Assembly (NCBI RefSeq): GCF_003595525.1 | Contig: NZ_CP022680.1 | Coordinates: forward strand, 1,638,001-1,702,000 | DNA length: 64,000 bases | Origin: Streptococcus respiraculi | GTDB lineage: Bacteria > Bacillota > Bacilli > Lactobacillales > Streptococcaceae | Reading direction: 5' to 3' | Shown: positions 26,345 to 40,816 of the stretch, piece after piece | How the letters are laid out: each line of letters opens with the position of its first letter | Position numbering within the stretch: the first letter of the stretch is position 1 | Translations under genes and position numbers: made by a program | The notes under the pieces: model-generated | Database searches by the model: none | What the model saw: only the letters and a program-made list of their open reading frames with translations | What the model was told of the DNA's origin: nothing

Positions 26345-27270
26345 GATATATGAACTTGAGAAAAAATGGGAGGACATGGTCTCGGATTGGTAAGATCTAC
26401 GATGTTAGAGTTTCCGATCTCAAATACATGATAAAACTCATGGCTAGATATGGCATTAAGGCAGGTAGGAAGAGGCTGGGCAAAAAGTCTTAAAAATAGT
26501 CAATGGCTTAGATTAACGTTGTCAAGAAACGTTGATTCTAAGCCATTTTATATTGTCCAGTTTTTAAGAGAGGTTAAAAATTGAGTTTTCGCCCAGCCTC
26601 ATTATTCTCCAGAACTGAAACAGGAAATAATGTATAAAGTTCTTCTTGAAGGCCAATCTCAACTATCCCTCTCTCTTGCCTATGAGCTCCTTAAATACCA
26701 CGATTGGCGTATGGTTAGTCCTCACCCTAAACTCCCTAAAAAAGCAGACGTCAAAACCATCTTAGCGTCTAAAAATAAAATCTTTATTCGAGAAGAGAGC
26801 AAGTAAGCGCTTCATCGCTGAGAAATCCTACCAAAAGACCTGCTTTAGGTATCAAGATACGACAGGATTTGGTCGTATTACTAAACTGGGTTCTTGTTGC
26901 TCACTAAAGAGTTGCCGTCCTCGCGTAGCTAGTCGAGTATCGCTATTCTTATGGTGCTGTAGATGCTCATACAGAAGACTCGCTTTTCATAATAGCAGGT
27001 AGATGTAATAGCCATTGGATAAATGAGCTATCAACGGCCTATCCAGATGATTACCTTATTTTAGTCATGGATAATAAATATCAGACCTTAGCTATCCCTA
27101 AGAATATAGAATTTACCTCCATTTCACCTTATACTCCTGAAATGAAACCTATTGAGCAAGTATGGGTTGAGATTCGAAAACGTGGGTTTAAAAATAAGGT
27201 ATTTAGAACACTAAACGAGGTCATTGATCAACTTCAAGAGGTGATTCAAACCTTGTTCTTTGCCAACTAA
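26345..27270 (+). pseudogene. Degraded IS3 (OrfA) and IS630 transposase remnants
   Basis: Conceptual translation in broken frames gives GKIYDVRVSDLKYMIKLMAR and YSPELKQEIMYKVLLEGQSQ, typical of an IS3-family OrfA. It passes into ELLKYHDWRMVSPHPKLPKK and then the C-terminal IS630 DDE segment DDYLILVMDN, with ISPYTPEMKPIEQVWVEIRK at 27130-27185. Several stops and shifts interrupt it; only the last 67 codons (27067-27270) form an open frame. The join between IS3 and IS630 parts suggests deletion between two elements. The interval to 27404 holds another GAGGCTGGG motif at 27286 and no gene. Confidence 0.7.
26472..26600. repeat. Small palindromic (MITE-like) element, 129 bp
   Basis: It is bounded by GAGGCTGGGCAAAAAG at 26472 and its near-complement ending GCCCAGCCTC at 26600. 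The inner arms TGGCTTAGA...AACGTT fold into a long hairpin at 26504-26545. It interrupts the IS3 OrfA remnant. GAGGCTGGG-ended repeats are common in streptococci. Confidence 0.65.
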
Positions 27271-29332: not shown

Positions 29333-31027
29333 TTACTTTTTAGGAAAGAATAACGAGATAGCTGTGTGAGAATCCTTACGAGAATCAATCTCCATACGAT
29401 AATCCTTACCAAACTGTAGTCGCAAGCGTTGGTCCACATTTTTTAAGCCGACACCGCCGAGTTTTACAAGAAGATTTTCAGTCGTATCATGCGCAATAAA
29501 GCCACGACCATTATCATAGATAGACACGACAAGAAAATCTCCTCTTTCTTCAACGAGCACACGCACCAAGCCCTGTCCCTTGACTTCTTTAATCCCATGG
29601 TAAATCGCATTTTCCACCAAGGGCTGCAAAACCAGCTTAGGCAGTTGAAAATCATCAAATCGTGCGTCTTCTTTGATTTCATAGGTCAACTTGTCCCCGT
29701 AGCGCTGTTTTTGGATAAAAAGATACTGACGCACATGGTCAATCTCATCTTTTAACGCAATCTGCTCATTCCCCTGATTCAGCGCCAAACGGAAATACTT
29801 GGCTAGCGATTTGGTCACCTCAACTACTTTCTCACTATTATTAAACTCCGCCATCCAAACAATTGTGTCTAAGGTATTGTACAGGAAATGAGGATTGATT
29901 TGACTGGAGAGAGCTTGTAGCTCGTATTTGCGGACATTTTGCTCTTCTTCTTTGACTGCAAGCATCAATTTGTCAATCTGATTCAACATACGATTAAATT
30001 GACGAGCTAAATCAACCAATTCAGGTGCCCCCTGCTCATTAGCACGTAAACTGGCATTTCCATTTCCAATGGCCAAAATCGTTTCCTGTAAATCCCGCAA
30101 AGGTTTGATCCAGTGGCGCAAGATAAACCAAATCCCCAAGAGACAAATAGCAAGTGCCAAGAAACCTGTCCCTACAAAGGATAGCAGAATCTGCCTTTGC
30201 AAGTCGTGAAGAGTTTCCAGAGAAGCCACTCCAATCATCACCCAATCACTCTGAGGAATCTTGTACTGGTAGACATAGGAGGCTCCTTGATTGACATAGC
30301 CGTTTTTCGCTAAGATGTAAGGCTCCAAGGCTTTCATCTCCTCACTAGATGAATAGACACTCTTTTTGGGATGATAGACAAATTCATGATTGCTATTGAT
30401 AATAAAGGTAAAGCCGTCTTCTCCCAGCTGCAAGCTATCCAAATAGTGCGACAGGGTATCATAAGCAATATCCAAGCGAACAACAGCGAGATTCTCGCCT
30501 TTTTCATCCACCACTTCTTGGGTAATAGAAACTACCCACTTGTCGCTTGATTCTGATAAGTTTTGCCGGGCTGGTGTCAGGACAGGCATAGCATGCTCAT
30601 GGATAGCTGCTTGATACCAAGCCTCTTTCATCATATCGCTAGATGTTTTCATGCTGACCGCCTCATCTGTTGCTACCAAGTGACCTGATTTTGTCACAAG
30701 AACAGCTGAGACCAAGTCGCGGTCGGTTGATAAAATCGTATCAAATAGTTTGCGAAGATTGCCCTCGTTTTGAGCGCTAGAATCTTCTGCGTAAGTCTTT
30801 ACCAAGTCATTCGTAGCAAGACTACTGGTCGTTTCCTTTAACTTTTCCAAATAAGACTGGACGAATTGACCACTTTGAGAAATGGTATGTTGCGTACTTT
30901 GCTCAGTTGTTTCACGAATCACATCCGAACTCGTATGATAATAAACTGCACCAACAATACCCAGAAGCAATAACATGGTAACAGCCACATAAACAACTAA
31001 CTGAACAAAAAGAGAAAACCGCTTCAT
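29333..31027 (-). CDS. YesM-type sensor histidine kinase (TCS09/ZmpS-like)
   Basis: The 564-residue kinase has two membrane segments (about residues 8-29 and 280-300) bracketing an extracellular Cache-like domain. Then come HAMP, the His_kinase domain with the phospho-acceptor in INPHFLYNTLDTIVWM and an ATPase domain with LVENAIYHGIKE and YDNGRGF. It overlaps the response regulator stop by 4 bases. Location next to msrAB, a surface thioredoxin and ccdA is the same as pneumococcal TCS09 (hk09/zmpS), which controls carbohydrate use and surface proteins. The signal is unknown. Confidence 0.9.
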   Translation of the reverse strand: MKRFSLFVQLVVYVAVTMLLLLGIVGAVYYHTSSDVIRETTEQSTQHTISQSGQFVQSYLEKLKETTSSLATNDLVKTYAEDSSAQNEGNLRKLFDTILSTDRDLVSAVLVTKSGHLVATDEAVSMKTSSDMMKEAWYQAAIHEHAMPVLTPARQNLSESSDKWVVSITQEVVDEKGENLAVVRLDIAYDTLSHYLDSLQLGEDGFTFIINSNHEFVYHPKKSVYSSSEEMKALEPYILAKNGYVNQGASYVYQYKIPQSDWVMIGVASLETLHDLQRQILLSFVGTGFLALAICLLGIWFILRHWIKPLRDLQETILAIGNGNASLRANEQGAPELVDLARQFNRMLNQIDKLMLAVKEEEQNVRKYELQALSSQINPHFLYNTLDTIVWMAEFNNSEKVVEVTKSLAKYFRLALNQGNEQIALKDEIDHVRQYLFIQKQRYGDKLTYEIKEDARFDDFQLPKLVLQPLVENAIYHGIKEVKGQGLVRVLVEERGDFLVVSIYDNGRGFIAHDTTENLLVKLGGVGLKNVDQRLRLQFGKDYRMEIDSRKDSHTAISLFFPKK

Positions 31028-31758
31028 CTCTGCTCTCCTTTTTTAAATTGGCGGGGGGTGACACCAACAACCTGTTTGAAACGCTGAGAAAAATAGTTCA
31101 TATCTTCAAAACCGACCTGCTCTGCTATTTCATAGATTTTTAAATCGGTTGTTAACAGTAACAATTTGGCTCTTTTCATCCGCTCTTGAATGAGATAATC
31201 TTGAAAGGGCAGTCCTAATTCTTTTTTAAAAATAACACTGAGGTGTGAGGGACTAAATCCGAGATTCTGAGCCAGAGATTTGAGGGATAAATCTTGGTCT
31301 GCCAAGCGTTCTTGGATGAGTTGTGCGAAACTGGATTCTTCACTTTGCTGAACTAAATCACGAATCTGCTGCCTTTTGTCTTCCCTATCTAGTTTCTCCT
31401 TAACCTTGAGTAACATCTCCTCCACATCTGCTTTGGAAAAAGGTTTGAGAAGATAGTCATCTGCTCCTAACTTAACAGCGGACAGCGCATAGTCAAAATC
31501 ATCATAACCAGTCAGAAAGACAATATGCGTCTCTGGATAATGCTCTTTGACCAGTTGCGCCAATCGGATACCGTTCATGTGCGGCATGTTGATATCGGTA
31601 AGAAGGATGTCTGCCTGCTCTTTCTGAAATAACTCCCAAGCCGCTAGGCCATTTTCAGCTTCTGCCACAACTACCATGCCCAGTTTGTCAAAATCAATCA
31701 AAGACGAAATCCCCTGCCGGACAAGGTATTCATCTTCTACAATCATCATTTTATACAT
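31024..31758 (-). CDS. YesN-type response regulator, AraC-family output (TCS09/ZmpR-like)
   Basis: The 244-residue protein has a receiver domain (MIVEDEYLVRQG, phospho-acceptor in ILLTDINMPHMNGIRLA, K in DDYLLKPFSK). An AraC-type double helix-turn-helix follows at about 145-240 (LGFSPSHLSVIFKKELG, VGFEDMNYFSQRFKQVVG). It forms a two-gene operon with the kinase, overlapping it by 4 bases. Target promoters cannot be identified here; the adjacent methionine-repair operon is one candidate. Confidence 0.92.
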   Translation of the reverse strand: MYKMMIVEDEYLVRQGISSLIDFDKLGMVVVAEAENGLAAWELFQKEQADILLTDINMPHMNGIRLAQLVKEHYPETHIVFLTGYDDFDYALSAVKLGADDYLLKPFSKADVEEMLLKVKEKLDREDKRQQIRDLVQQSEESSFAQLIQERLADQDLSLKSLAQNLGFSPSHLSVIFKKELGLPFQDYLIQERMKRAKLLLLTTDLKIYEIAEQVGFEDMNYFSQRFKQVVGVTPRQFKKGEQR

Positions 31759-31834
31759 AACTTTCTCCTGTTGTCTCTAGTATAGCAGAAAACCGACCAT
31801 CTTCCTATACAGTCTTGTCTATTTTCATATAAAT

Positions 31835-31854
31835 AAGGCGAGTTTCCCCGCCTT
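31835..31854 (-). terminator. Terminator-like hairpin after msrAB
   Basis: AAGGCG/CGCCTT with 8-base loop, followed on the minus strand by ATTTAT. It is about 100 bp after the msrAB stop and separates that operon from the two-component genes. Confidence 0.55.
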
Positions 31855-31954
31855 ACCTTCATATAATCAATTGAAACTGACAATTGTTACGTTGCTAAAA
31901 TTGCAAGCATAATCGGAGTTAGGAAAGATGATGCCTCAGTTTCAAATGAGTATA

Positions 31955-33073
31955 TTACACATAGTTTAAGAGGTAGCCATAGCCTTGACTTTCCATTTCT
32001 GCTTTTGGAATAAACTTGATTGAAAGGCTATTGATACAGTAGCGCAGACCACCTTTATCTTTCGGGCCGTCTGTAAAGACATGACCCAAATGAGAGTCGC
32101 CAACTCGGCTTCTTACCTCAGTCCGCACCATGTTGAAACTGGTATCATCTTTATACGTTGCTACGTCTGGACTGATTGGTTTTGAGAAACTTGGCCAGCC
32201 ACATCCTGAATCATACTTGTCTTTTGAAGAAAAGAGAGGCTCGCCTGTTACAATATCCACGTAGATTCCATCTTCAAATTGATCCCAATAACGGTTTGAG
32301 AAGGCACGTTCTGTGTCATTCTTTTGCGTTACAGCGTACTCTTCTGCCGTGAGCATCTTCTTGATTTCTTCATCACTTGGTTTGTGGTACAAATTTTCAT
32401 CAATGACAGGATAGCTAGCTTGGTTGACGTTAATATGACAGTATCCATTTGGATTTTTCTTGAGGTAATCTTGGTGATATTCTTCTGCTTCTACAAAGTT
32501 TTCCAAAGCACCTTTTTCAACGGCAAGTGGTTTATCAAATTTCTTAGCTTGTTCATTAAAAACTTCTTCAATGACAGCTGAATCGTCCTTATCCGTGTAA
32601 TAAACACCTGTTCGATACTGGGTTCCACGGTCATTTCCTTGTTTGTTGACACTGGTTGGGTCAATGATACGGAAATAGTGGAGCAAGATTTCACGGAGGG
32701 ATACTTGATTCTTATCGTAGGTCACTTTAACTGTTTCAGCATGACCTGTCTGGCTAATCAATTCATACTTGGTGGTGCTTCCTTTACCGTTAGCATAACC
32801 AGATACAGCATCTGTCACTCCCGGAACACGTGAGAAGTATTCTTCTACACCCCAGAAACAACCGCCTGCAAGATAAATTTCTCTAAGATCTTCTTTCATA
32901 TTGTCTTTTTTATCCTTTCTTGTGACTTCGTTGGTCTGGCTCATGGCTGCATCTTTAATTTGCGAAGTAGATGATGTGGAAGATCCAGTCAACAAACGAC
33001 TTCCCAATACAAAGGCTACAACCACAATCAACACACTGCCAAGGATGAGGAATAATTTGGACTTATCTTCCAT
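31955..33073 (-). CDS. msrAB: Membrane-anchored methionine sulfoxide reductase MsrA/MsrB fusion
   Basis: The 372-residue protein has an N-terminal membrane anchor ([18 protein letters not shown]), so both domains face outside. MsrA follows (about 65-225) with its catalytic cysteine in [17 protein letters not shown], then MsrB (about 235-365) with SGCGWPSF and the catalytic cysteine in [14 protein letters not shown]. It reduces both S- and R-methionine sulfoxide in surface proteins. Electrons should come from the thioredoxin-like lipoprotein encoded 10 bp upstream, which is recharged through CcdA. The arrangement equals the pneumococcal MsrAB1/Etrx1/CcdA1 system. Confidence 0.95.
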
Positions 33074-33083
33074 ATCCTACCTC

Positions 33084-33743
33084 CTACTTGATTTCTTTGA
33101 GCTTGTCTTCGATACCAGCTTTATCCATAAATCCTGGATGGACTTCTACCAAAACGCCATCACTACCGATAAAGGCTGAGGTTGGGTAAGCACGGACACC
33201 GTATTCTTGCAATAATTTTCCGCTTGGGTCAAGAAGGACTGGCATGTGTTTGTAGTCAAGTCCATCATACCATTTTTTGAAATCTTCTGCAGACTTTTCA
33301 CCCATGTGATTAGGAGAAACAACTGTTAAGATGACATAATCCTTACCTTCTTCCTGACTCGCAAGTTCTTCTGTGTCATGCAAGGTTGAAAGACAGATTG
33401 AACACCATGATGCCCAGAATTTCAGATAAACTTTTTTGCCCTTGAAATCAGATAGCTTATAGGTCTTTCCATCTACACCTTCTAAACTAAAATCAGGTGC
33501 TGGTTTCCCATCATTCATCGCTTTTGGTTCTCCTTCTTTCATATCGTCTTTCTTCATGTCCTTGTTGTCATCAGACATCTTGTCATCTTTCATATCTTTC
33601 TTTTCATCGGACATCTTATCTTCTTTTTTCATCATAGCACTATCATCTGTTTTTTTCATATCATCCATCTTCTGGTTGGTTGAGCAGGCAGTTAAAACAC
33701 CTAAACAAATGAGGCTAGTGAGTAGCAGGTTGCGTTTTTTCAT
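33084..33743 (-). CDS. Thioredoxin-like (TlpA-type) lipoprotein, Etrx-like, with Met-rich linker
   Basis: The 219-residue lipoprotein has a signal peptide ending in the lipobox LTAC (Cys20). A charged Met-rich linker (about residues 24-78, with motifs MKKEDKMSDEKKDMKDDKMS) separates it from the TlpA/AhpC-TSA domain (PAPDFSLEGVDGKTYKLSDF) with redox motif WASWCSICLSTL. It should pass electrons from CcdA to MsrAB at the cell surface. The linker is a paralogue of the whole mature sequence of the neighbouring lipoprotein, so the two genes share a duplicated 5' part. It starts 11 bp from the lipoprotein stop. Confidence 0.92.
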   Translation of the reverse strand: MKKRNLLLTSLICLGVLTACSTNQKMDDMKKTDDSAMMKKEDKMSDEKKDMKDDKMSDDNKDMKKDDMKEGEPKAMNDGKPAPDFSLEGVDGKTYKLSDFKGKKVYLKFWASWCSICLSTLHDTEELASQEEGKDYVILTVVSPNHMGEKSAEDFKKWYDGLDYKHMPVLLDPSGKLLQEYGVRAYPTSAFIGSDGVLVEVHPGFMDKAGIEDKLKEIK

Positions 33744-33754
33744 ACTGTCCTCCC

Positions 33755-34132
33755 TTATTTATCCTTGTCGTCCATTTTTTCGTCTTTCATATCCTCTTTG
33801 TCAGACATCTTATCATCTTTCATGTCTTTTTTCTCGTCAGACATGTTATCTTTCATTTCGTCTTTTTTCATGTCATCTTTATCAGACATTTTTTCATCCT
33901 TCATGTCTTTTTTCTCGTCAGACATGTTATCTTTCATTTCGTCTTTTTTCATGTTGTCTTTGTCAGACATTTTTTCATCCTTCATGTCTTTCTTTTCATC
34001 AGACATCTTGTCTTCTTTTTTCATCATCGAGCTGTCATCTGTTTTTTTCATATCGTCTGTCTTTTGAGTAGAGCAAGCAGTTAACAATCCAACTGACAAG
34101 AGGCTAGCGAGTAATAATGTTTTTGTTTTCAT
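33755..34132 (-). CDS. Methionine-rich repeat lipoprotein, putative surface oxidant sink
   Basis: The product is 125 residues. A signal peptide with lipobox LLTAC (Cys20) is followed by a mature chain made almost only of Asp, Glu, Lys, Met, Ser and Asn; I count 18 Met in about 106 mature residues. A 27-residue unit beginning DNMSDEKKDMKDEKMSDKD repeats in tandem. There is no folded domain. It lies in an operon with ccdA, a thioredoxin-like lipoprotein and msrAB. I infer that its methionines are oxidised in place of other surface proteins and are recycled by MsrAB, analogous to methionine-rich MrpX peptides beside MsrP-type systems. Metal (copper) binding by Met is an alternative. Confidence 0.85.
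   Translation of the reverse strand: MKTKTLLLASLLSVGLLTACSTQKTDDMKKTDDSSMMKKEDKMSDEKKDMKDEKMSDKDNMKKDEMKDNMSDEKKDMKDEKMSDKDDMKKDEMKDNMSDEKKDMKDDKMSDKEDMKDEKMDDKDK
33841..34002. repeat. Two tandem 81-bp repeats in the Met-rich lipoprotein gene
   Basis: Units at 33841-33921 and 33922-34002 are nearly identical and in frame (27 codons each), with partial units on both sides. Recombination or slippage would change the protein length without breaking the frame. Confidence 0.8.
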
Positions 34133-34167: not shown

Positions 34168-34875
34168 TTATCCAAATAGTTGTGTAAAAATGTTTAAATT
34201 GCCTAACATGAGCAAGATTCCCATTAAGATAATGATGGCTCCACCAATTTTCTTCAAGGTCCCCATGTAAGGTTTGAGTTTACTGAAGTAGCGTAAGACA
34301 AATGATGAAGCCAAGGCTACTAATAAGAATGGAAGGGCAAGACCTAATGTGTAGAGCAACATCAAGATTGCTCCCTGCCAAGCACCATCTCCTCCAGATG
34401 CTGCAATGGCAAGCACTGAACTGAGGACCGGTCCGACACATGGCGTCCATCCAAAGCTAAAGGTCAAACCGAGCAAGAAAGCATTGTAGAAATCGTTGCG
34501 TTTTTTATTCTGCTTGAATTGTACACTTTTTTGTTTTTGCAAATGGGCGATATTGATAATCCCCATTTGGTGAATCCCAAGGACAATGACGATTGCTCCA
34601 AGAACATACCGGAACCAGTCAGTATAAAGAAGATTTCCAAGGAAGCCTGCTCCGTAGCCTAAGGTGACAAAGACCATGGATAGTCCTGCGATGAAAAAGA
34701 GAGTCTTGACAATACCATACCAGGCAATCTCAAATCCTAAAATTCTCACGGTTCGCGGTTCATCTGAGTCGAGTAAGACACCAACGTAAACTGGCAAGAG
34801 TGGCAAGATGCAGGGTGAAAAGAAGGATAAGATTCCTGCTAAAAACACCGATAGTAAAAATACAAGTGAGGTCAT
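34168..34875 (-). CDS. ccdA: CcdA-type thiol-disulfide membrane transporter
   Basis: The start is set at the ATG at 34875 (AAGGAG upstream), not the TTG further 5', giving 235 residues. Six membrane segments and the paired cysteines in FFSPCILPLLPVYVG (first) and FGWTPCVGPVLSSV (second) identify the CcdA/DsbD-beta family. It carries electrons from cytosolic thioredoxin to the surface thioredoxin-like lipoprotein. It is the first gene of the four-gene msrAB operon. Confidence 0.93.
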   Translation of the reverse strand: MTSLVFLLSVFLAGILSFFSPCILPLLPVYVGVLLDSDEPRTVRILGFEIAWYGIVKTLFFIAGLSMVFVTLGYGAGFLGNLLYTDWFRYVLGAIVIVLGIHQMGIINIAHLQKQKSVQFKQNKKRNDFYNAFLLGLTFSFGWTPCVGPVLSSVLAIAASGGDGAWQGAILMLLYTLGLALPFLLVALASSFVLRYFSKLKPYMGTLKKIGGAIIILMGILLMLGNLNIFTQLFG

Positions 34876-35008
34876 TTCGTTACTCCTTATCAATTTGTAA
34901 GTCTAGTATAGTCCTATTCCACCCCAAAAACTAGAGAATTTGATGCGGAAAAACTTGAATTTGATAAGATACGAAAAAAATCTACCACTTTCGTGATAGA
35001 TGACGCAA

Positions 35009-36334
35009 TTATTCCATATCAAAACTCTCTGCTGTTTGCCCATCAGGCATACAAATAGAAAATAAAATTCCCACAATTGCTGGTACAAGCCACGGAAGCG
35101 ATGCATCTGCAAATGGCAGAGCAGCAATAAGCTTACCTAATCCGTCCAATTTGAATTGCGCACTGATGATGGTCGCAAAAGCGACAATGGTAACCAAGGA
35201 AATGGTCAGCTGCATACCGATTTTCGAGAGCGGAACCAAGCGATTGACAATGACTAAGAGAACAATGGCAATGGTAATCGGATAAAGAATTTGCAAAACT
35301 GGTACTGAGTAGGCAATAATGGCTGATAGACCGATATTAGCAATTCCAAAGCCAATCAAGGTAAAGAGCGTTGCATAGACCTTATATCCTAAGCGTGGGA
35401 AGGTTTTAACAAAGAACTCCGAAGTTGACACAATCAAGCCAACTGTTGTTGTAAAGCAGGTCATGGTCACCATGATCGCTAGGAAAATCTGCGCACTTGA
35501 ACCAAAGATAGCTTGCGTTGCTTGCGATAGCACATAGACCCCCTTGTTGGAATCAGATGCCATAATCTCTGCCGGAATTGGGAAATGATTGCCCAAGAAC
35601 CCCAGTCCGATATACAGAGCACTGAAACCTAGAGCCACAACGATTCCTACAACCCAAATCGTGGATACATATTCTTTTTTAGAAGCAAAACCAAGCTGGT
35701 TCATGGTTTCTACAGCAATCACACTAAAGGCAACTGAGGCAAGGGCGTCAAGCGTATTATAACCTTCTAAAAATCCTGTTCCAAAGGCCGATGTCACATA
35801 GGTACCTGATGCTGTCATCGGAGTACTACTGCCGTATTTTGTAGCTCCTAAAACAACCAAGACCACAATCAACAAAGCAAAGACCGGTGTCAAAATTCTT
35901 CCTACCAAGTCGAGAATTTTAGAGGGATTGAGCGAAATCAGATAGGCTGCAGTGAAATAGATGAGGGTAAAGATGAGCAAGCCCCACTGACCGTTACCAG
36001 CTAAAAGCGGAGCAACTCCTACTTCATAGGCTGTCGTTGCTGTCCTAGGAATGGCAAAGAATGGTCCAATTGACAAATAAAGGGCCACCAGATAAGTCGT
36101 TGCAAACCACGGCGCAATCTTGCGTGAAATTTCATAGACATAACCTTTAGGATTTAAAGTCCCGATGATGAGAGTCAAGACAGCAATTCCTACACCTGAG
36201 AGGACAAATCCACTAATGGCTGACCAAAAATTCTCGCCTGATAAGGCACCCAGTGTAGGGGGGAAGATTAAATTTCCCGCTCCAAAAAATATACCAAACA
36301 GGAGCAAACCTGTTAAGGAACCCTTTTTAATCAT
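35009..36334 (-). CDS. brnQ: Branched-chain amino acid:cation symporter BrnQ
   Basis: From the ATG at 36334 (AAGGAG at -12) the protein is 441 residues with about 12 membrane segments. The N-terminal GLLLFGIFFGAGNLIFPP is diagnostic of the LIVCS/BrnQ family, which imports Leu, Ile and Val with Na+ or H+. It is monocistronic; no regulatory T-box or leader ORF is visible in the 170 bp upstream. Confidence 0.92.
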   Translation of the reverse strand: MIKKGSLTGLLLFGIFFGAGNLIFPPTLGALSGENFWSAISGFVLSGVGIAVLTLIIGTLNPKGYVYEISRKIAPWFATTYLVALYLSIGPFFAIPRTATTAYEVGVAPLLAGNGQWGLLIFTLIYFTAAYLISLNPSKILDLVGRILTPVFALLIVVLVVLGATKYGSSTPMTASGTYVTSAFGTGFLEGYNTLDALASVAFSVIAVETMNQLGFASKKEYVSTIWVVGIVVALGFSALYIGLGFLGNHFPIPAEIMASDSNKGVYVLSQATQAIFGSSAQIFLAIMVTMTCFTTTVGLIVSTSEFFVKTFPRLGYKVYATLFTLIGFGIANIGLSAIIAYSVPVLQILYPITIAIVLLVIVNRLVPLSKIGMQLTISLVTIVAFATIISAQFKLDGLGKLIAALPFADASLPWLVPAIVGILFSICMPDGQTAESFDME

Positions 36335-36510
36335 GTAAATCTCCTTTTCATTCAATAGTCTCTATTATATCAAAAACTCTCTATCAGATGATACTTCCTT
36401 TCGATTTTTAAAGGTTTTGTCAATTCTGAATTTTCACACAAATTTATTCATTTTATCATTAAACAACAAAATCAAGACTAGACACTTTTGTCTTAGCCTT
36501 GACTCTCTTT

Positions 36511-38337
36511 TTATCGGAAACGCAACAATCTCAAACTATTTAAGATGACCAAAATCGTTGATACTTCATGGAAAAAGACACCTTCTGTCAGATCAAGGAT
36601 TCCTAGAAAATTCAGCAAGATTAAGAGAATGATGACCGTAATCGAAAATCCGATATTAAAACGGGTAATCCTGCCGTATTTCCAGCTAAGTTGGTAGAGC
36701 AAGCTCACATTATCTAAATTGTTGTGAATGATGATAACATCGCTCATCTCAAGCGCCACATCTGTCCCACCACCCATGGCAATTCCAATGTCTGCATGCG
36801 CCAGAATCGGAGCATCATTCAGACCATCACCCATCATACCAACGATTTTTCCTTCTTTCCCATACTCTATCAGATAAGCCACCTTGTCCTCAGGCAGACA
36901 CTGGGCATGGACACCTGTAATCTGCAACTGTTCCGCGACAAATTGGGCTGTCTCTCTCCTATCTCCTGTTAACATGACAACTTCCACCCCTGCTTGTTGC
37001 AAGGCCGTAACTGTCGTACCTGCCTCATCACGTATCGTATCGACTAATTCAATAAACCCGACAATCTGCTTGTCCTGTGCGACAAACAATAAGGTTCCAT
37101 AACTTTCTTTTGACAAATAGCCATGCGGATCAGCAGCATTTCCCATAAACTGCTGACTACCAATCGCAATATCCCCCATTTGGATACCGTGTCCCACGTG
37201 TTCCTTGACTGGTAAGACCGTTTCCGGTGCGCTATGAGATCGATCTTTAAAATAAGCCAAGATTGATTTTGCGAGCGGATGAGCAGATCTACTTTCCATA
37301 TATAAAATAAGGGGCAGCAGCTCTGGATCTTCCAACTGATAGTCATTAAGCCGGAATTCTCCCTTGGTCAGAGTACCTGTTTTATCCGTGCAAAGGACCG
37401 ATAACTGCATCATATTTTCCAAAACTTGACCATTTTTGATTAACACCCCATGCTTCGCACCAAAACTCATGGCGCTCAGCATGGCAGGCGTAATGGAGGC
37501 AATCAAGGCACAAGGACTTGCTACCGTCAACAAAATCATACCACGGTAAAAGGCTTCAACAAAGGATTGCCGTTGAACAAACATTAGGCAAGCAATAAAA
37601 ACTACAACACCAACCAAGACCAGTATGACATACTTCTTTTGAAGCTGGTGAATACGTCTATCCCGTTTACTCTGACTGTTACTAGCTGCTTGGATAAGAG
37701 AAACAATCTGGGCATATCGGCTCTCACTACTTTCTTTTGTAACCTGATAGGTTGCAGTCTCTCCGACATTCAGCGTTCCTGCAAAGACCTGCTCCCCTTT
37801 TTCTTTCATGACAGGAAGACTCTCACCTGTCAAAAGACTTTCATCAACCAGCATTTCTTCCTCAGCCTGTCCGTCTAGGGCAATCTGCTCTCCCTTTGTT
37901 ACTACAAGAATATCATGGAGATGGATCGCTTCAATGTCTTTCAACTCTACTTGTCCGTCACTTTTTAGGACACTAGCCTGCTTAGGAATCTGGGTCATCA
38001 AACTTTCCATAGTAACCATCGATTTACGATAAACATAGTCTTCCAACACCTCAGAAGCTGCAAAGATAAAGAGCAATATGGCTGCCTCACTAAAATAAGC
38101 AATTGCAACCGCTCCAAGGGCTGATAAAATCATCAATAAATCAACCTGAAAATCTCCCGTACCCAGCATTTCTTTGATAACATCTTTTCCAATCGGTCCA
38201 CCAAGCGATACAATCGCTAAACAGAAAAAACCGATACTCCAGCTACTTGAGAGATGCTCCAAGGCTAGTCCTATCCCCAAACTCAGTGTCCCCAGAAGAA
38301 ACAAGATTCCTCTTTGCGTTTTGACAATAGCTTTCAT
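36511..38337 (-). CDS. P1B-type metal-transporting ATPase (PmtA/CadA-like, probable P1B-4 group)
   Basis: The ATG at 38337 with GGAGGAG upstream gives 608 residues. It lacks an N-terminal HMA domain. Motifs in order: TGES in DESLLTGESLPVM, the metal-site SPC in VASPCALIASITPAML, phosphorylation loop DKTGTLTKGE, ESRSAHPLAKS, GDGLNDAPILAHADIG and a final-helix FFHEVSTILVILNSLRLL. SPC plus the HExxT-type last helix and no HMA fit P1B-4 exporters of Fe(II), Co(II) or Zn(II), including streptococcal PmtA. The leader contains a folded region resembling the NiCo/czcD riboswitch and a terminator, which supports export of Co/Ni/Fe. Exact metal is not settled. Confidence 0.88.
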   Translation of the reverse strand: MKAIVKTQRGILFLLGTLSLGIGLALEHLSSSWSIGFFCLAIVSLGGPIGKDVIKEMLGTGDFQVDLLMILSALGAVAIAYFSEAAILLFIFAASEVLEDYVYRKSMVTMESLMTQIPKQASVLKSDGQVELKDIEAIHLHDILVVTKGEQIALDGQAEEEMLVDESLLTGESLPVMKEKGEQVFAGTLNVGETATYQVTKESSESRYAQIVSLIQAASNSQSKRDRRIHQLQKKYVILVLVGVVVFIACLMFVQRQSFVEAFYRGMILLTVASPCALIASITPAMLSAMSFGAKHGVLIKNGQVLENMMQLSVLCTDKTGTLTKGEFRLNDYQLEDPELLPLILYMESRSAHPLAKSILAYFKDRSHSAPETVLPVKEHVGHGIQMGDIAIGSQQFMGNAADPHGYLSKESYGTLLFVAQDKQIVGFIELVDTIRDEAGTTVTALQQAGVEVVMLTGDRRETAQFVAEQLQITGVHAQCLPEDKVAYLIEYGKEGKIVGMMGDGLNDAPILAHADIGIAMGGGTDVALEMSDVIIIHNNLDNVSLLYQLSWKYGRITRFNIGFSITVIILLILLNFLGILDLTEGVFFHEVSTILVILNSLRLLRFR

Positions 38338-38367
38338 TGTTACTCCTCCTCTTTGATATGAAAACCG

Positions 38368-38416
38368 AAAAAAGAGCATACCTATGGACAGTTCGTACTG
38401 TCTCACAGATATGCTC
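38368..38416 (-). terminator. Intrinsic terminator within the leader of the metal ATPase
   Basis: On the minus strand GAGCATATCTGTG-A-GACAGT folds back on ACTGTC and CATAGGTATGCTC (two G-U pairs, one bulged A), followed by TTTTTT. It ends only 30 bases before the ATPase start, so it must be conditionally bypassed for expression. Confidence 0.9.
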
Positions 38417-39172: not shown

Positions 39173-39432
39173 CGACTCACTTCAATAGCAGTATCATTAT
39201 CCTTTATTAGTTATCTTCTATACATGTATATTTTTGTATTGCTGTAATATATTTTGAGATGATTGTCAATATCATCATAACAAACTCACATGGACATTTA
39301 GCCATCTATCGAAAGAAAAGGCAAAAAACATTTCACTCTTTGAAATAGCGTCAAAAATCTATACGTAATAAACAGTTGCACTCTTTCAGTATGCAAAAGT
39401 CAGTAACGGATAACTAAAAGGGGATTAAAAAT

Positions 39433-39468
39433 AAAAAAGCACCTTGGGATAGTGCCCCAAAGTGCTTA
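39433..39468 (-). terminator. Terminator of eno
   Basis: AGCACCTTGGG and CCCAAAGTGCT (one internal mismatch) form the stem, ending in TTTTTT on the minus strand, 40 bp after eno. Confidence 0.85.
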
Positions 39469-39505
39469 ATATTAAGGCTTTTCAGCCCTTAACTCTCTAA
39501 AGAGA

Positions 39506-40816
<1,311 letters not shown>

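What the first reader, a model, noticed from the sequence alone, without database searches (positions are those of the whole stretch)
33084..34132. Methionine-rich lipoproteins coupled to MsrAB: a surface oxidant-scavenging cycle
A lipoprotein made almost only of D, E, K, M, S and N, with about 17% Met, lies in one operon with CcdA, an extracellular thioredoxin and MsrAB. The thioredoxin's own linker has the same Met-rich sequence. Met side chains can absorb hypochlorite or peroxide and be reduced again by MsrAB, giving a renewable shield. This is analogous to the MrpX/MsrP-type system of some Proteobacteria but built from Gram-positive parts; I do not know of a description in streptococci.
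Basis: partly seen in the sequence, partly recalled or inferred. Interest (0 to 1): 0.8.

Follow-up and report, generated by a model that had tools for sequence, protein, structure and literature searches.

The report
Methionine-rich lipoprotein beside streptococcal MsrAB
Many streptococci carry, between the genes of their known surface methionine-repair system, a small unstructured lipoprotein packed with methionines; it is probably a renewable sponge for oxidants, a Gram-positive counterpart of a scheme known from Gram-negative bacteria.

Summary
A 125-aa lipoprotein gene (here "Mrl"; 34132-33755, minus strand; 18 Met in 106 mature residues) lies between ccdA and etrx, 35 and 11 nt from them, upstream of msrAB. 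The Etrx stalk has the same sequence type (10 Met in 57 aa). It is not a one-off: 52 of 90 selected streptococcal Etrx loci have a free Mrl. In 48 unique mature forms (4175 aa, lipobox Cys left out) there are 754 Met but 5 I/L/V/F/W/Y, 0 His and 0 Cys. In 8 lineage representatives MxM and MxxM never occur (29.5 expected) and five-residue spacing dominates: against Cu/Ag motifs, and like the MXKDX repeats of MrpX/BcrX. Met columns change less than others in three of four clades, not in the largest. In near relatives the gene appears merged with etrx (clear in four of six). The operon has a conserved operator-like promoter element, exact once per genome in 57 of 284 streptococci. Best reading: a dedicated oxidant-scavenging substrate of extracellular MsrAB, recharged by CcdA-Etrx. 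I found no experiment on this protein. The principle is known (MrpX, BcrX); the Gram-positive, MsrAB-linked form was not described in what the answered searches showed. New variant of a known kind.

The parts
34926..34965 (-). operator-like element, two halves ATCAAATTCAAGTTTTT / ATCAAATTCTCTAGTTTTT; ATCAAATTC repeats 21 bp apart
   Evidence: 76 of 82 ccdA upstream regions carry the first half with at most 3 mismatches (4 of 820 shuffles); a longer exact pattern occurs once per genome in 57 of 284 genomes
34905..34910 (-). -10-like TATACT
   Evidence: sequence, conserved in the alignment
34168..34875 (-). ccdA, transmembrane thiol electron carrier (likely ATG start at 34875; longer ORF to 34893 listed)
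   Evidence: Pfam DsbD_TM PF02683 8.5e-18; AAGGAG before the ATG
33755..34132 (-). mrl, methionine-rich lipoprotein, 125 aa, 18 Met in 106 mature residues
   Evidence: no Pfam/NCBIfam family over cut-off; AlphaFold2 mean pLDDT 53, no residue at 70 or above
33084..33743 (-). etrx, extracellular thioredoxin-like lipoprotein with Met-rich stalk
   Evidence: PF08534 3.7e-22; PDB 4hqs and 4evm as best sequence matches
31955..33073 (-). msrAB, MsrA-MsrB fusion with an N-terminal hydrophobic segment
   Evidence: PF01625 8.7e-57, PF01641 1.1e-47; PDB 3e0m 2.2e-127; N-terminus; only PF01625 match in the genome at E up to 0.001
31831..31858 (-). hairpin after msrAB, possible terminator
   Evidence: 12-pair stem within 31800-31960, which folds with z = -3.4; not listed by the terminator scan
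31024..31758 (-). response regulator with AraC-type output domain, candidate regulator of the operon (inference)
   Evidence: PF00072, PF12833; co-occurrence with the operator
29333..31027 (-). sensor histidine kinase with dCache domain
   Evidence: PF02743, PF06580

Best explanation
Mrl is a dedicated, disordered, lipid-anchored methionine reservoir outside the membrane. Two-electron oxidants (HOCl above all, also peroxide) convert its exposed Met to Met sulfoxide before surface proteins are damaged; membrane-anchored MsrAB reduces it again with electrons that pass NADPH - thioredoxin - CcdA - Etrx. The Met-rich Etrx stalk serves the same purpose and may hold substrate, reductase and electron donor together. 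The operon is probably switched by the neighbouring two-component system through a conserved direct-repeat operator. Shown in relatives by others: the CcdA-Etrx-MsrAB electron path. Shown here by sequence only: the gene, its linkage, its Met conservation, the absence of copper-type Met pairs, the operator. Inferred: scavenging, recycling of this protein, and regulation.
For: Linkage to msrAB in 52 of 90 selected loci plus two outside the genus. Composition: 754 Met against 5 I/L/V/F/W/Y, no His, no Cys beyond the lipobox one, in 4175 aa. Met columns: 12 changes in 66 columns against 144 in 305 non-Met columns, binomial p = 0.0005; 156 amino-acid against 282 synonymous changes by parsimony. Met density is kept while the repeat differs (MSDEKKDMKDEK in the window, MKKDDMKDD in L157, TETTMMDSK in L158). 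Predicted topology fits: Mrl and Etrx have lipoboxes, MsrAB an N-terminal hydrophobic segment. No predicted fold. Papers, passages read: S. gordonii MsrAB is extracytoplasmic and reduced by SdbB/Sgo_1177, which CcdA1/2 reduce (PMC7034828); pneumococcal Etrx1/2 reduce MsrAB2 (PMC3914529); Met-rich, Cys-poor proteins are oxidised especially efficiently by hypochlorite and reduced by Msr (PMC3514235); BcrX, a Met-rich MXKDX-repeat protein, is encoded with MsrQP-like genes and the operon contributes to HOCl resistance (PMC8315932).
Against: No experiment on this protein was found. In the largest clade (22 loci, 'A_sang') Met columns change as often as others (9 in 17 against 39 in 69). Whole lineages with the operon lack both Mrl and a Met-rich stalk (20 loci with short stalks of 0-4 Met), so it is dispensable there. 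The S. gordonii and S. pneumoniae phenotypes in the passages read were explained without it. Spacing and composition statistics are not phylogenetically independent, and the loci were chosen by score, not at random.
Confidence: 0.66

Rival explanations
1. A Cu(I)/Ag(I)- or other metal-binding surface lipoprotein that uses thioether ligands.
For: Met-only ligands bind Cu(I) in known periplasmic copper proteins (recalled); a P1B-type ATPase gene lies about 1.6 kb away (36511-38406), with a transporter gene in between; 1 of 80 ccdA upstream regions has an exact and 2 a one-mismatch match to a CopY-type box (recalled consensus, no shuffle control).
Against: 0 His and 0 Cys (lipobox apart) in 4175 pooled residues; no MxM or MxxM in 8 lineage representatives (0 against 29.5 expected, 0 of 2000 shuffles as low); over the 48 unique forms MxM 0 against 127, MxxM 16 against 125. 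The window promoter matches the CopY box no better than 2 mismatches in 8 positions. By contrast, an ORF in another streptococcus that looks like a copper-ATPase N-terminus (judged by eye) is rich in both His and Met (L217).
Confidence: 0.1
2. A redox-signalling or proximity device: the oxidation state of Mrl or of the Etrx stalk is read by the dCache sensor kinase or steers MsrAB to its electron donor, with scavenging secondary.
For: Met-rich segment fused to the electron donor in single-gene relatives; operator and two-component genes occur or are missing together in the loci read.
Against: The operator and two-component system are present as well in loci without any Met in the stalk and without Mrl (L047-L049), so sensing does not need it. 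No interaction data.
Confidence: 0.15
3. A low-complexity spacer or charge layer whose Met content is a by-product of repeat expansion.
For: Length and repeat number vary freely (mature 44-110 aa); Met columns drift as much as others in the largest clade.
Against: Met is nearly the only hydrophobic residue throughout, is kept in unlike repeat units, and is conserved more than its neighbours in three of four clades.
Confidence: 0.09

Closest known systems
MrpX (Azospira suillum) / BcrX (Brucella melitensis), MXKDX-repeat Met-rich peptides with YedYZ/MsrPQ
   Same: Exported, Met-rich repeat protein with Met every five residues (implied by the name MXKDX), encoded with an envelope Met sulfoxide reductase.
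   Different: Here a lipoprotein of Gram-positive cells; the reductase is MsrAB fed by CcdA-Etrx, not a molybdoenzyme (no PF00174 match in the genome); the regulator candidate is a two-component system, not an ECF sigma factor; TIGR02953 cut-off not reached. The MrpX paper itself was not held; known through citing papers.
Pneumococcal / S. gordonii CcdA1-Etrx1-MsrAB2 extracellular reducing pathway
   Same: Same families and order ccdA, etrx, msrAB; same role expected for CcdA, Etrx, MsrAB.
   Different: The pneumococcal operon is described as three genes; the S. gordonii operon as five genes with no Met-rich gene in the passages read. The window adds mrl and a Met-rich Etrx stalk.
Met-rich proteins used as Msr substrates (MRP4-6 of Pseudomonas, Idiomarina, Saccharophagus)
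   Same: With predicted signal peptides, Cys-free after their removal, 21-25% Met; oxidised by hypochlorite and reduced by Msr in vitro.
   Different: Chosen as tools by composition; no operon link to Msr is described in the passages read.

Membership tests
penta_MxKDx, NCBIfam TIGR02953 (taken here as the model of MXKDX/MrpX/BcrX-type proteins; that MrpX and BcrX score in it was not tested) | score at or above the curated cut-off of 41 bits | tested here: not met
   10 Mrl proteins: window protein not listed at E up to 10; listed below cut-off in 5 of 10 (L125 37.1, L092 25.1, L157 18.7, L123 15.5, L064 12.8 bits); 4 of 21 genomes with a match at E up to 1, 0 of 21 over cut-off; the control rings in 3 of 14 genomes, 0 over cut-off.
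MrpX/MsrP-type system | partner MsrP/YedY molybdoenzyme | tested here: not met
   No PF00174 match in the own genome; 9 of 14 control genomes ring.
MrpX-like function | Met oxidised by HOCl and recycled by an envelope Msr | not testable with these tools
   Needs biochemistry.
Streptococcal CcdA-Etrx-MsrAB extracellular reducing operon | ccdA, CSIC thioredoxin lipoprotein and membrane-anchored MsrAB in one gene cluster | tested here: met
Methionine-type copper-binding proteins | MxM/MxxM pairs or Met plus His clusters (recalled definition) | tested here: not met
   Window Mrl: no Met 2 or 3 apart, no His; over 48 unique forms 16 MxxM remain.
Bacterial lipoprotein | signal peptide with lipobox ending in Cys | tested here: met
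   LTAC at residues 17-20 of Mrl; L17, A19, C20 invariant in 20 aligned sequences. Lipidation itself not testable.

The most novel reading that the evidence does not exclude
A swappable Met-sulfoxide substrate module: the same Met-rich segment exists as a free lipoprotein, as the stalk of the electron donor, or both, so that the donor that recharges MsrAB carries its own bait. Oxidised stalks would bring Etrx and MsrAB together and make surface scavenging self-recharging, with the operon under a dedicated two-component switch that senses extracellular oxidant state.
Probability: 0.22. Interest if true: 0.78.

Novelty: new variant of a known kind. Interest (0 to 1): 0.6.

Why it matters
The streptococcal CcdA-Etrx-MsrAB pathway has been studied for peroxide resistance, colonisation and virulence, yet its natural substrate pool is open. 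A co-encoded, nearly pure Met reservoir would be an obvious dedicated substrate, would help to explain what the pathway is for in the species that have it, and gives a directly testable difference between species with and without it. The conserved operator offers a handle on the signal sensed by an adjacent two-component system.

Tried and rejected
Antisense ORFs over mrl and etrx (33556-34071, 33765-34067 plus strand) were set aside: no lipobox, no operon fit. Known regulator boxes (PerR, CopY, Rex, CodY, AdcR, CtsR, CiaR, CIRCE, CcpA, MntR; consensus recalled, no shuffle control) gave no convincing match in the window promoter. G138's TIGR02953 hits lie in a His/Met-rich ORF that looks like a P-type ATPase N-terminus and in a frame overlapping a lipoprotein ORF, not in an Mrl. 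G369's hit is an ORF that looks like a fasciclin-type lipoprotein with DDEM repeats; no Msr genes were found in the 7.5 kb fetched (L159). L124 was dropped (no Etrx). L104's Etrx could not be classed and L083's start is unsure. The short half-site alone is not specific: 30 sites at up to 2 mismatches in the genome against 7 for the reversed control, and 14 at up to 3 mismatches in the window against 8.5 expected; only the exact or longer form stands out. The protein database search with the single Mrl found 8 proteins: 5 Etrx-type proteins with redoxin domains from other sources, the window's own Etrx, and 2 short pieces without domains (92 and 68 aa); no free Mrl of the kind seen in the genomes was identified among them, perhaps through low-complexity handling. 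Structure prediction gave no usable fold, so no fold search was made.

Full report
WHAT IS THERE. The window is G000:C1:1638001-1702000 of a 2.06-Mb Streptococcus genome. The named relatives found by Etrx are S. cuniculi CCUG 65085 (92% identity) and WM131 (84%), S. sp. LYSM12 (80%) and S. acidominimus CCUG 27296 (79%) (records very near the window may be left out there). On the minus strand lie ccdA (34875-34168), mrl (34132-33755), etrx (33743-33084) and msrAB (33073-31955), 10-35 nt apart, then a hairpin and, 196 nt after msrAB, an AraC-type response regulator and a dCache histidine kinase. Mature Mrl has 106 residues: K31 D30 M18 E10 S9 T3 N3 C1 Q1. No Pfam or NCBIfam model reaches its cut-off, no PDB sequence matches at E up to 1, and AlphaFold2 with 20 sequences gives mean pLDDT 53 with no residue at 70 or above, as expected of a disordered chain.

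HOW COMMON. Searching Mrl in 284 Streptococcus genomes gave 63 with a match at 1e-3, some of them only Etrx stalks or chance; the Etrx core is in 197 of 284 at 1e-20. I took 90 regions from these lists, chosen by Etrx or Mrl score, not at random, and read them with the window region: 91 loci, one (L124) without Etrx. Of the 90 loci with Etrx, 52 have a free Mrl between ccdA and etrx (criterion: lipobox, more than 8% Met; the printout was cut around L081-L082). Two further genomes, G032 and G078, have it too (L162, L163), so at least 54 of 284. In a sample of 395 genomes of the order (Streptococcus included), 30 have a match at 1e-6; 4 of these are not Streptococcus. Two of the four (L157, L158), from one genus of another family, carry the whole ccdA-mrl-etrx-msrAB-regulator-kinase block, the genes other than mrl at 75-94% identity to the window, best explained by horizontal transfer; 2 of 4 genomes of that genus have it. 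The other two (L159, L160) show no Etrx or MsrAB match in the 7-7.5 kb fetched.

IS METHIONINE THE POINT? Pooled over 48 unique mature Mrl sequences without the lipobox Cys (4175 aa): D 26.0, K 23.0, S 21.4, M 18.1, E 5.0%; 754 Met against 5 I/L/V/F/W/Y; no His, no Cys. Hydrophilic segments of other frames in the fetched DNA have 4.3-5.6% Met, segments of this system 13.9-15.1%. By parsimony on locus trees, Met columns have 12 changes in 66 columns, other columns 144 in 305 (p = 0.0005), and 156 amino-acid changes stand against 282 synonymous ones. The result is uneven: in the 22-locus clade A Met columns vary as much as others (9 in 17 against 39 in 69); the other three clades together have 3 Met changes among 108 (p = 5e-6). 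The tests treat columns as equal targets and are rough. The Met-bearing repeat differs between lineages while Met stays frequent (L158: TETTMMDSK; L157: MKKDDMKDD). Spacing: in 8 lineage representatives no two Met are 2 or 3 apart (29.5 expected) and 56 neighbouring pairs are 5 apart (9.3 expected). Over all 48 forms MxM 0 against 127 and MxxM 16 against 125 expected. This is unlike MxM/MxxM copper sites and like the MXKDX repeat.

FREE OR FUSED. The free gene and a Met-rich Etrx stalk partly replace each other. With a free Mrl the stalk has 0-4 Met except in the four window-clade loci that have both (6-10 Met). Without it, 17 loci have long stalks (44 aa or more) with 4-16 Met and 20 have short stalks with 0-4 Met; one locus (L104) was not classed. 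In six single-gene relatives of the window (L038, L039, L041, L043, L045, L046) the first 90 nt of etrx resemble the window's mrl leader more than its etrx leader (72-88% against 69-74%; clear in L038, L041, L043, L046, weak in L039 and L045), so the two genes have probably merged by deletion across the shared repeat. Results that fit less well, same call: L038 resembles the etrx leader of L044 (80%) more than the mrl leaders of L042 and L044 (74, 72%), and L045 shows no clear preference against L042 and L044. The 40 nt before the start point to mrl clearly in L038, L041 and L045 (77-89 against 58-61% for the window), hardly at all in L043 and L046 (74 against 73%, with L040's etrx at 78%), and the other way in L039 (56 against 62%). 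Direction and number of events were not tested formally.

REGULATION. Upstream of ccdA stands ATCAAATTCAAGTTTTTCCGCATCAAATTCTCTAGTTTTT, 15 nt before TATACT. The first 16-nt half occurs with at most 3 mismatches in 76 of 82 ccdA upstream regions, against 4 of 820 shuffles; the remaining 6, pneumococcus-like, have a diverged form. The longer pattern CAAATTCAAGTTTTTNNNNAT occurs exactly in 57 of 284 genomes, once in each, with no match of the reversed control in any. For the 45 of these 57 whose Etrx position was listed, all sites are on the operon's strand 965-1440 nt before the Etrx core; the other 12 were not checked. The 10 loci without adjacent ccdA also lack the two-component genes, and no site was found 100-900 nt before Etrx (best 5-6 mismatches); they form one clade and lack ccdA too, so this co-occurrence is one event and is confounded. 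Direct repeats 21 bp apart next to the promoter suit an AraC-type activator; that the neighbouring regulator binds here is inference. Loci without any Met-rich segment share the site, so it belongs to the operon, not to Mrl alone.

MECHANISM. The electron path is established in relatives: S. gordonii CcdA1/2 reduce SdbB and Sgo_1177, which reduce extracytoplasmic MsrAB; mutants are peroxide-sensitive (PMC7034828, abstract and passages). Pneumococcal Etrx1/2 and MsrAB2 work likewise, and the Etrx1 crystal model starts at residue 53, leaving the stalk unseen (PMC3914529, passages). In group A Streptococcus, strains with higher msrAB-operon transcripts survived H2O2 and NaOCl better, and deleting msrAB lowered survival in H2O2 and in macrophages (PMC11238559, passages). 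Met-rich, Cys-poor proteins are oxidised especially efficiently by hypochlorite and reduced by Msr (PMC3514235, passages). Mrl therefore fits a sacrificial, rechargeable substrate. In this genome MsrAB is the only PF01625 match, so MsrA-type repair appears to be extracellular only.

WHAT IS KNOWN. MrpX is described as part of a periplasmic Met-cycling mechanism against hypochlorite (through PMC4623255, one passage; the original not obtained); BcrX is called a Met-rich MXKDX repeat protein and its operon is HOCl-induced (PMC8315932, passages; also PMC10151825, passages). Membership was tested: the TIGR02953 cut-off is not reached (L125 comes nearest, 37.1 of 41 bits) and MsrP is absent. So it works like MrpX but is not filed as one; shared descent or convergence of such repeats cannot be told from sequence. 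PMC8076862, PMC6210949, PMC7464077 and PMC10880999 were seen in passages only and showed nothing on streptococcal Met-rich lipoproteins.

IN PRINT? Searches 'methionine-rich + lipoprotein + streptococcus + MsrAB' (3 papers), MrpX terms (25 of 27 listed), S. gordonii MsrAB (5 papers), S. sanguinis terms (15 of 16 listed) and SGO_1178 (0 papers) showed no description of this gene in the titles, abstract starts and passages seen; SGO_1178 as the gordonii locus tag is my guess. Five further searches failed, and supplementary files were not read, so an unseen description remains possible.

Noticed in passing
window 31955-33073: The extracellular MsrAB is the only MsrA-domain (PF01625) match in this genome; pneumococcus is reported to have an additional intracellular MsrAB1.
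   Followed up: partly
L157 2799-8622 and L158 1-5555: The whole operon with its two-component system occurs in a genus of another family, genes other than mrl at 75-94% identity: likely horizontal transfer.
   Followed up: partly
window 36511-38406: P1B-type metal ATPase with an SPC motif and HEVST near its end, resembling the P1B-4 group (motifs recalled); separated from the operon by a BrnQ-like transporter gene (35009-36355; recalled resemblance).
   Followed up: no
L110 (etrx of G133): Etrx with an unusually long, 107-residue stalk holding 16 Met and many His (KMKKHDKMKSD repeats); may bind metal.
   Followed up: no
L159 2998-3705 (minus): ORF that looks like a fasciclin-type lipoprotein with a (T/A)DDEM repeat stalk in another family of the order.
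   Followed up: no
L057, minus strand, nt 1-315: End of a surface protein with an LPKTG sortase signal and Met-containing PSQEGQMNMKPSTT repeats, some 2 kb upstream of ccdA.
   Followed up: no
L161 (G150) and L116 (G205): Mrl frame interrupted in L161 and MsrAB frame interrupted in L116; intact copies exist in other genomes.
   Followed up: no
window 39427-39490: SpF01 sRNA (RF02425, 61.6 bits), minus strand, just downstream of the enolase-like ORF 39506-40813.
   Followed up: no
window 27067-27270: 67-aa ORF that looks like the end of a transposase (recalled resemblance), probably an insertion-sequence remnant.
   Followed up: no
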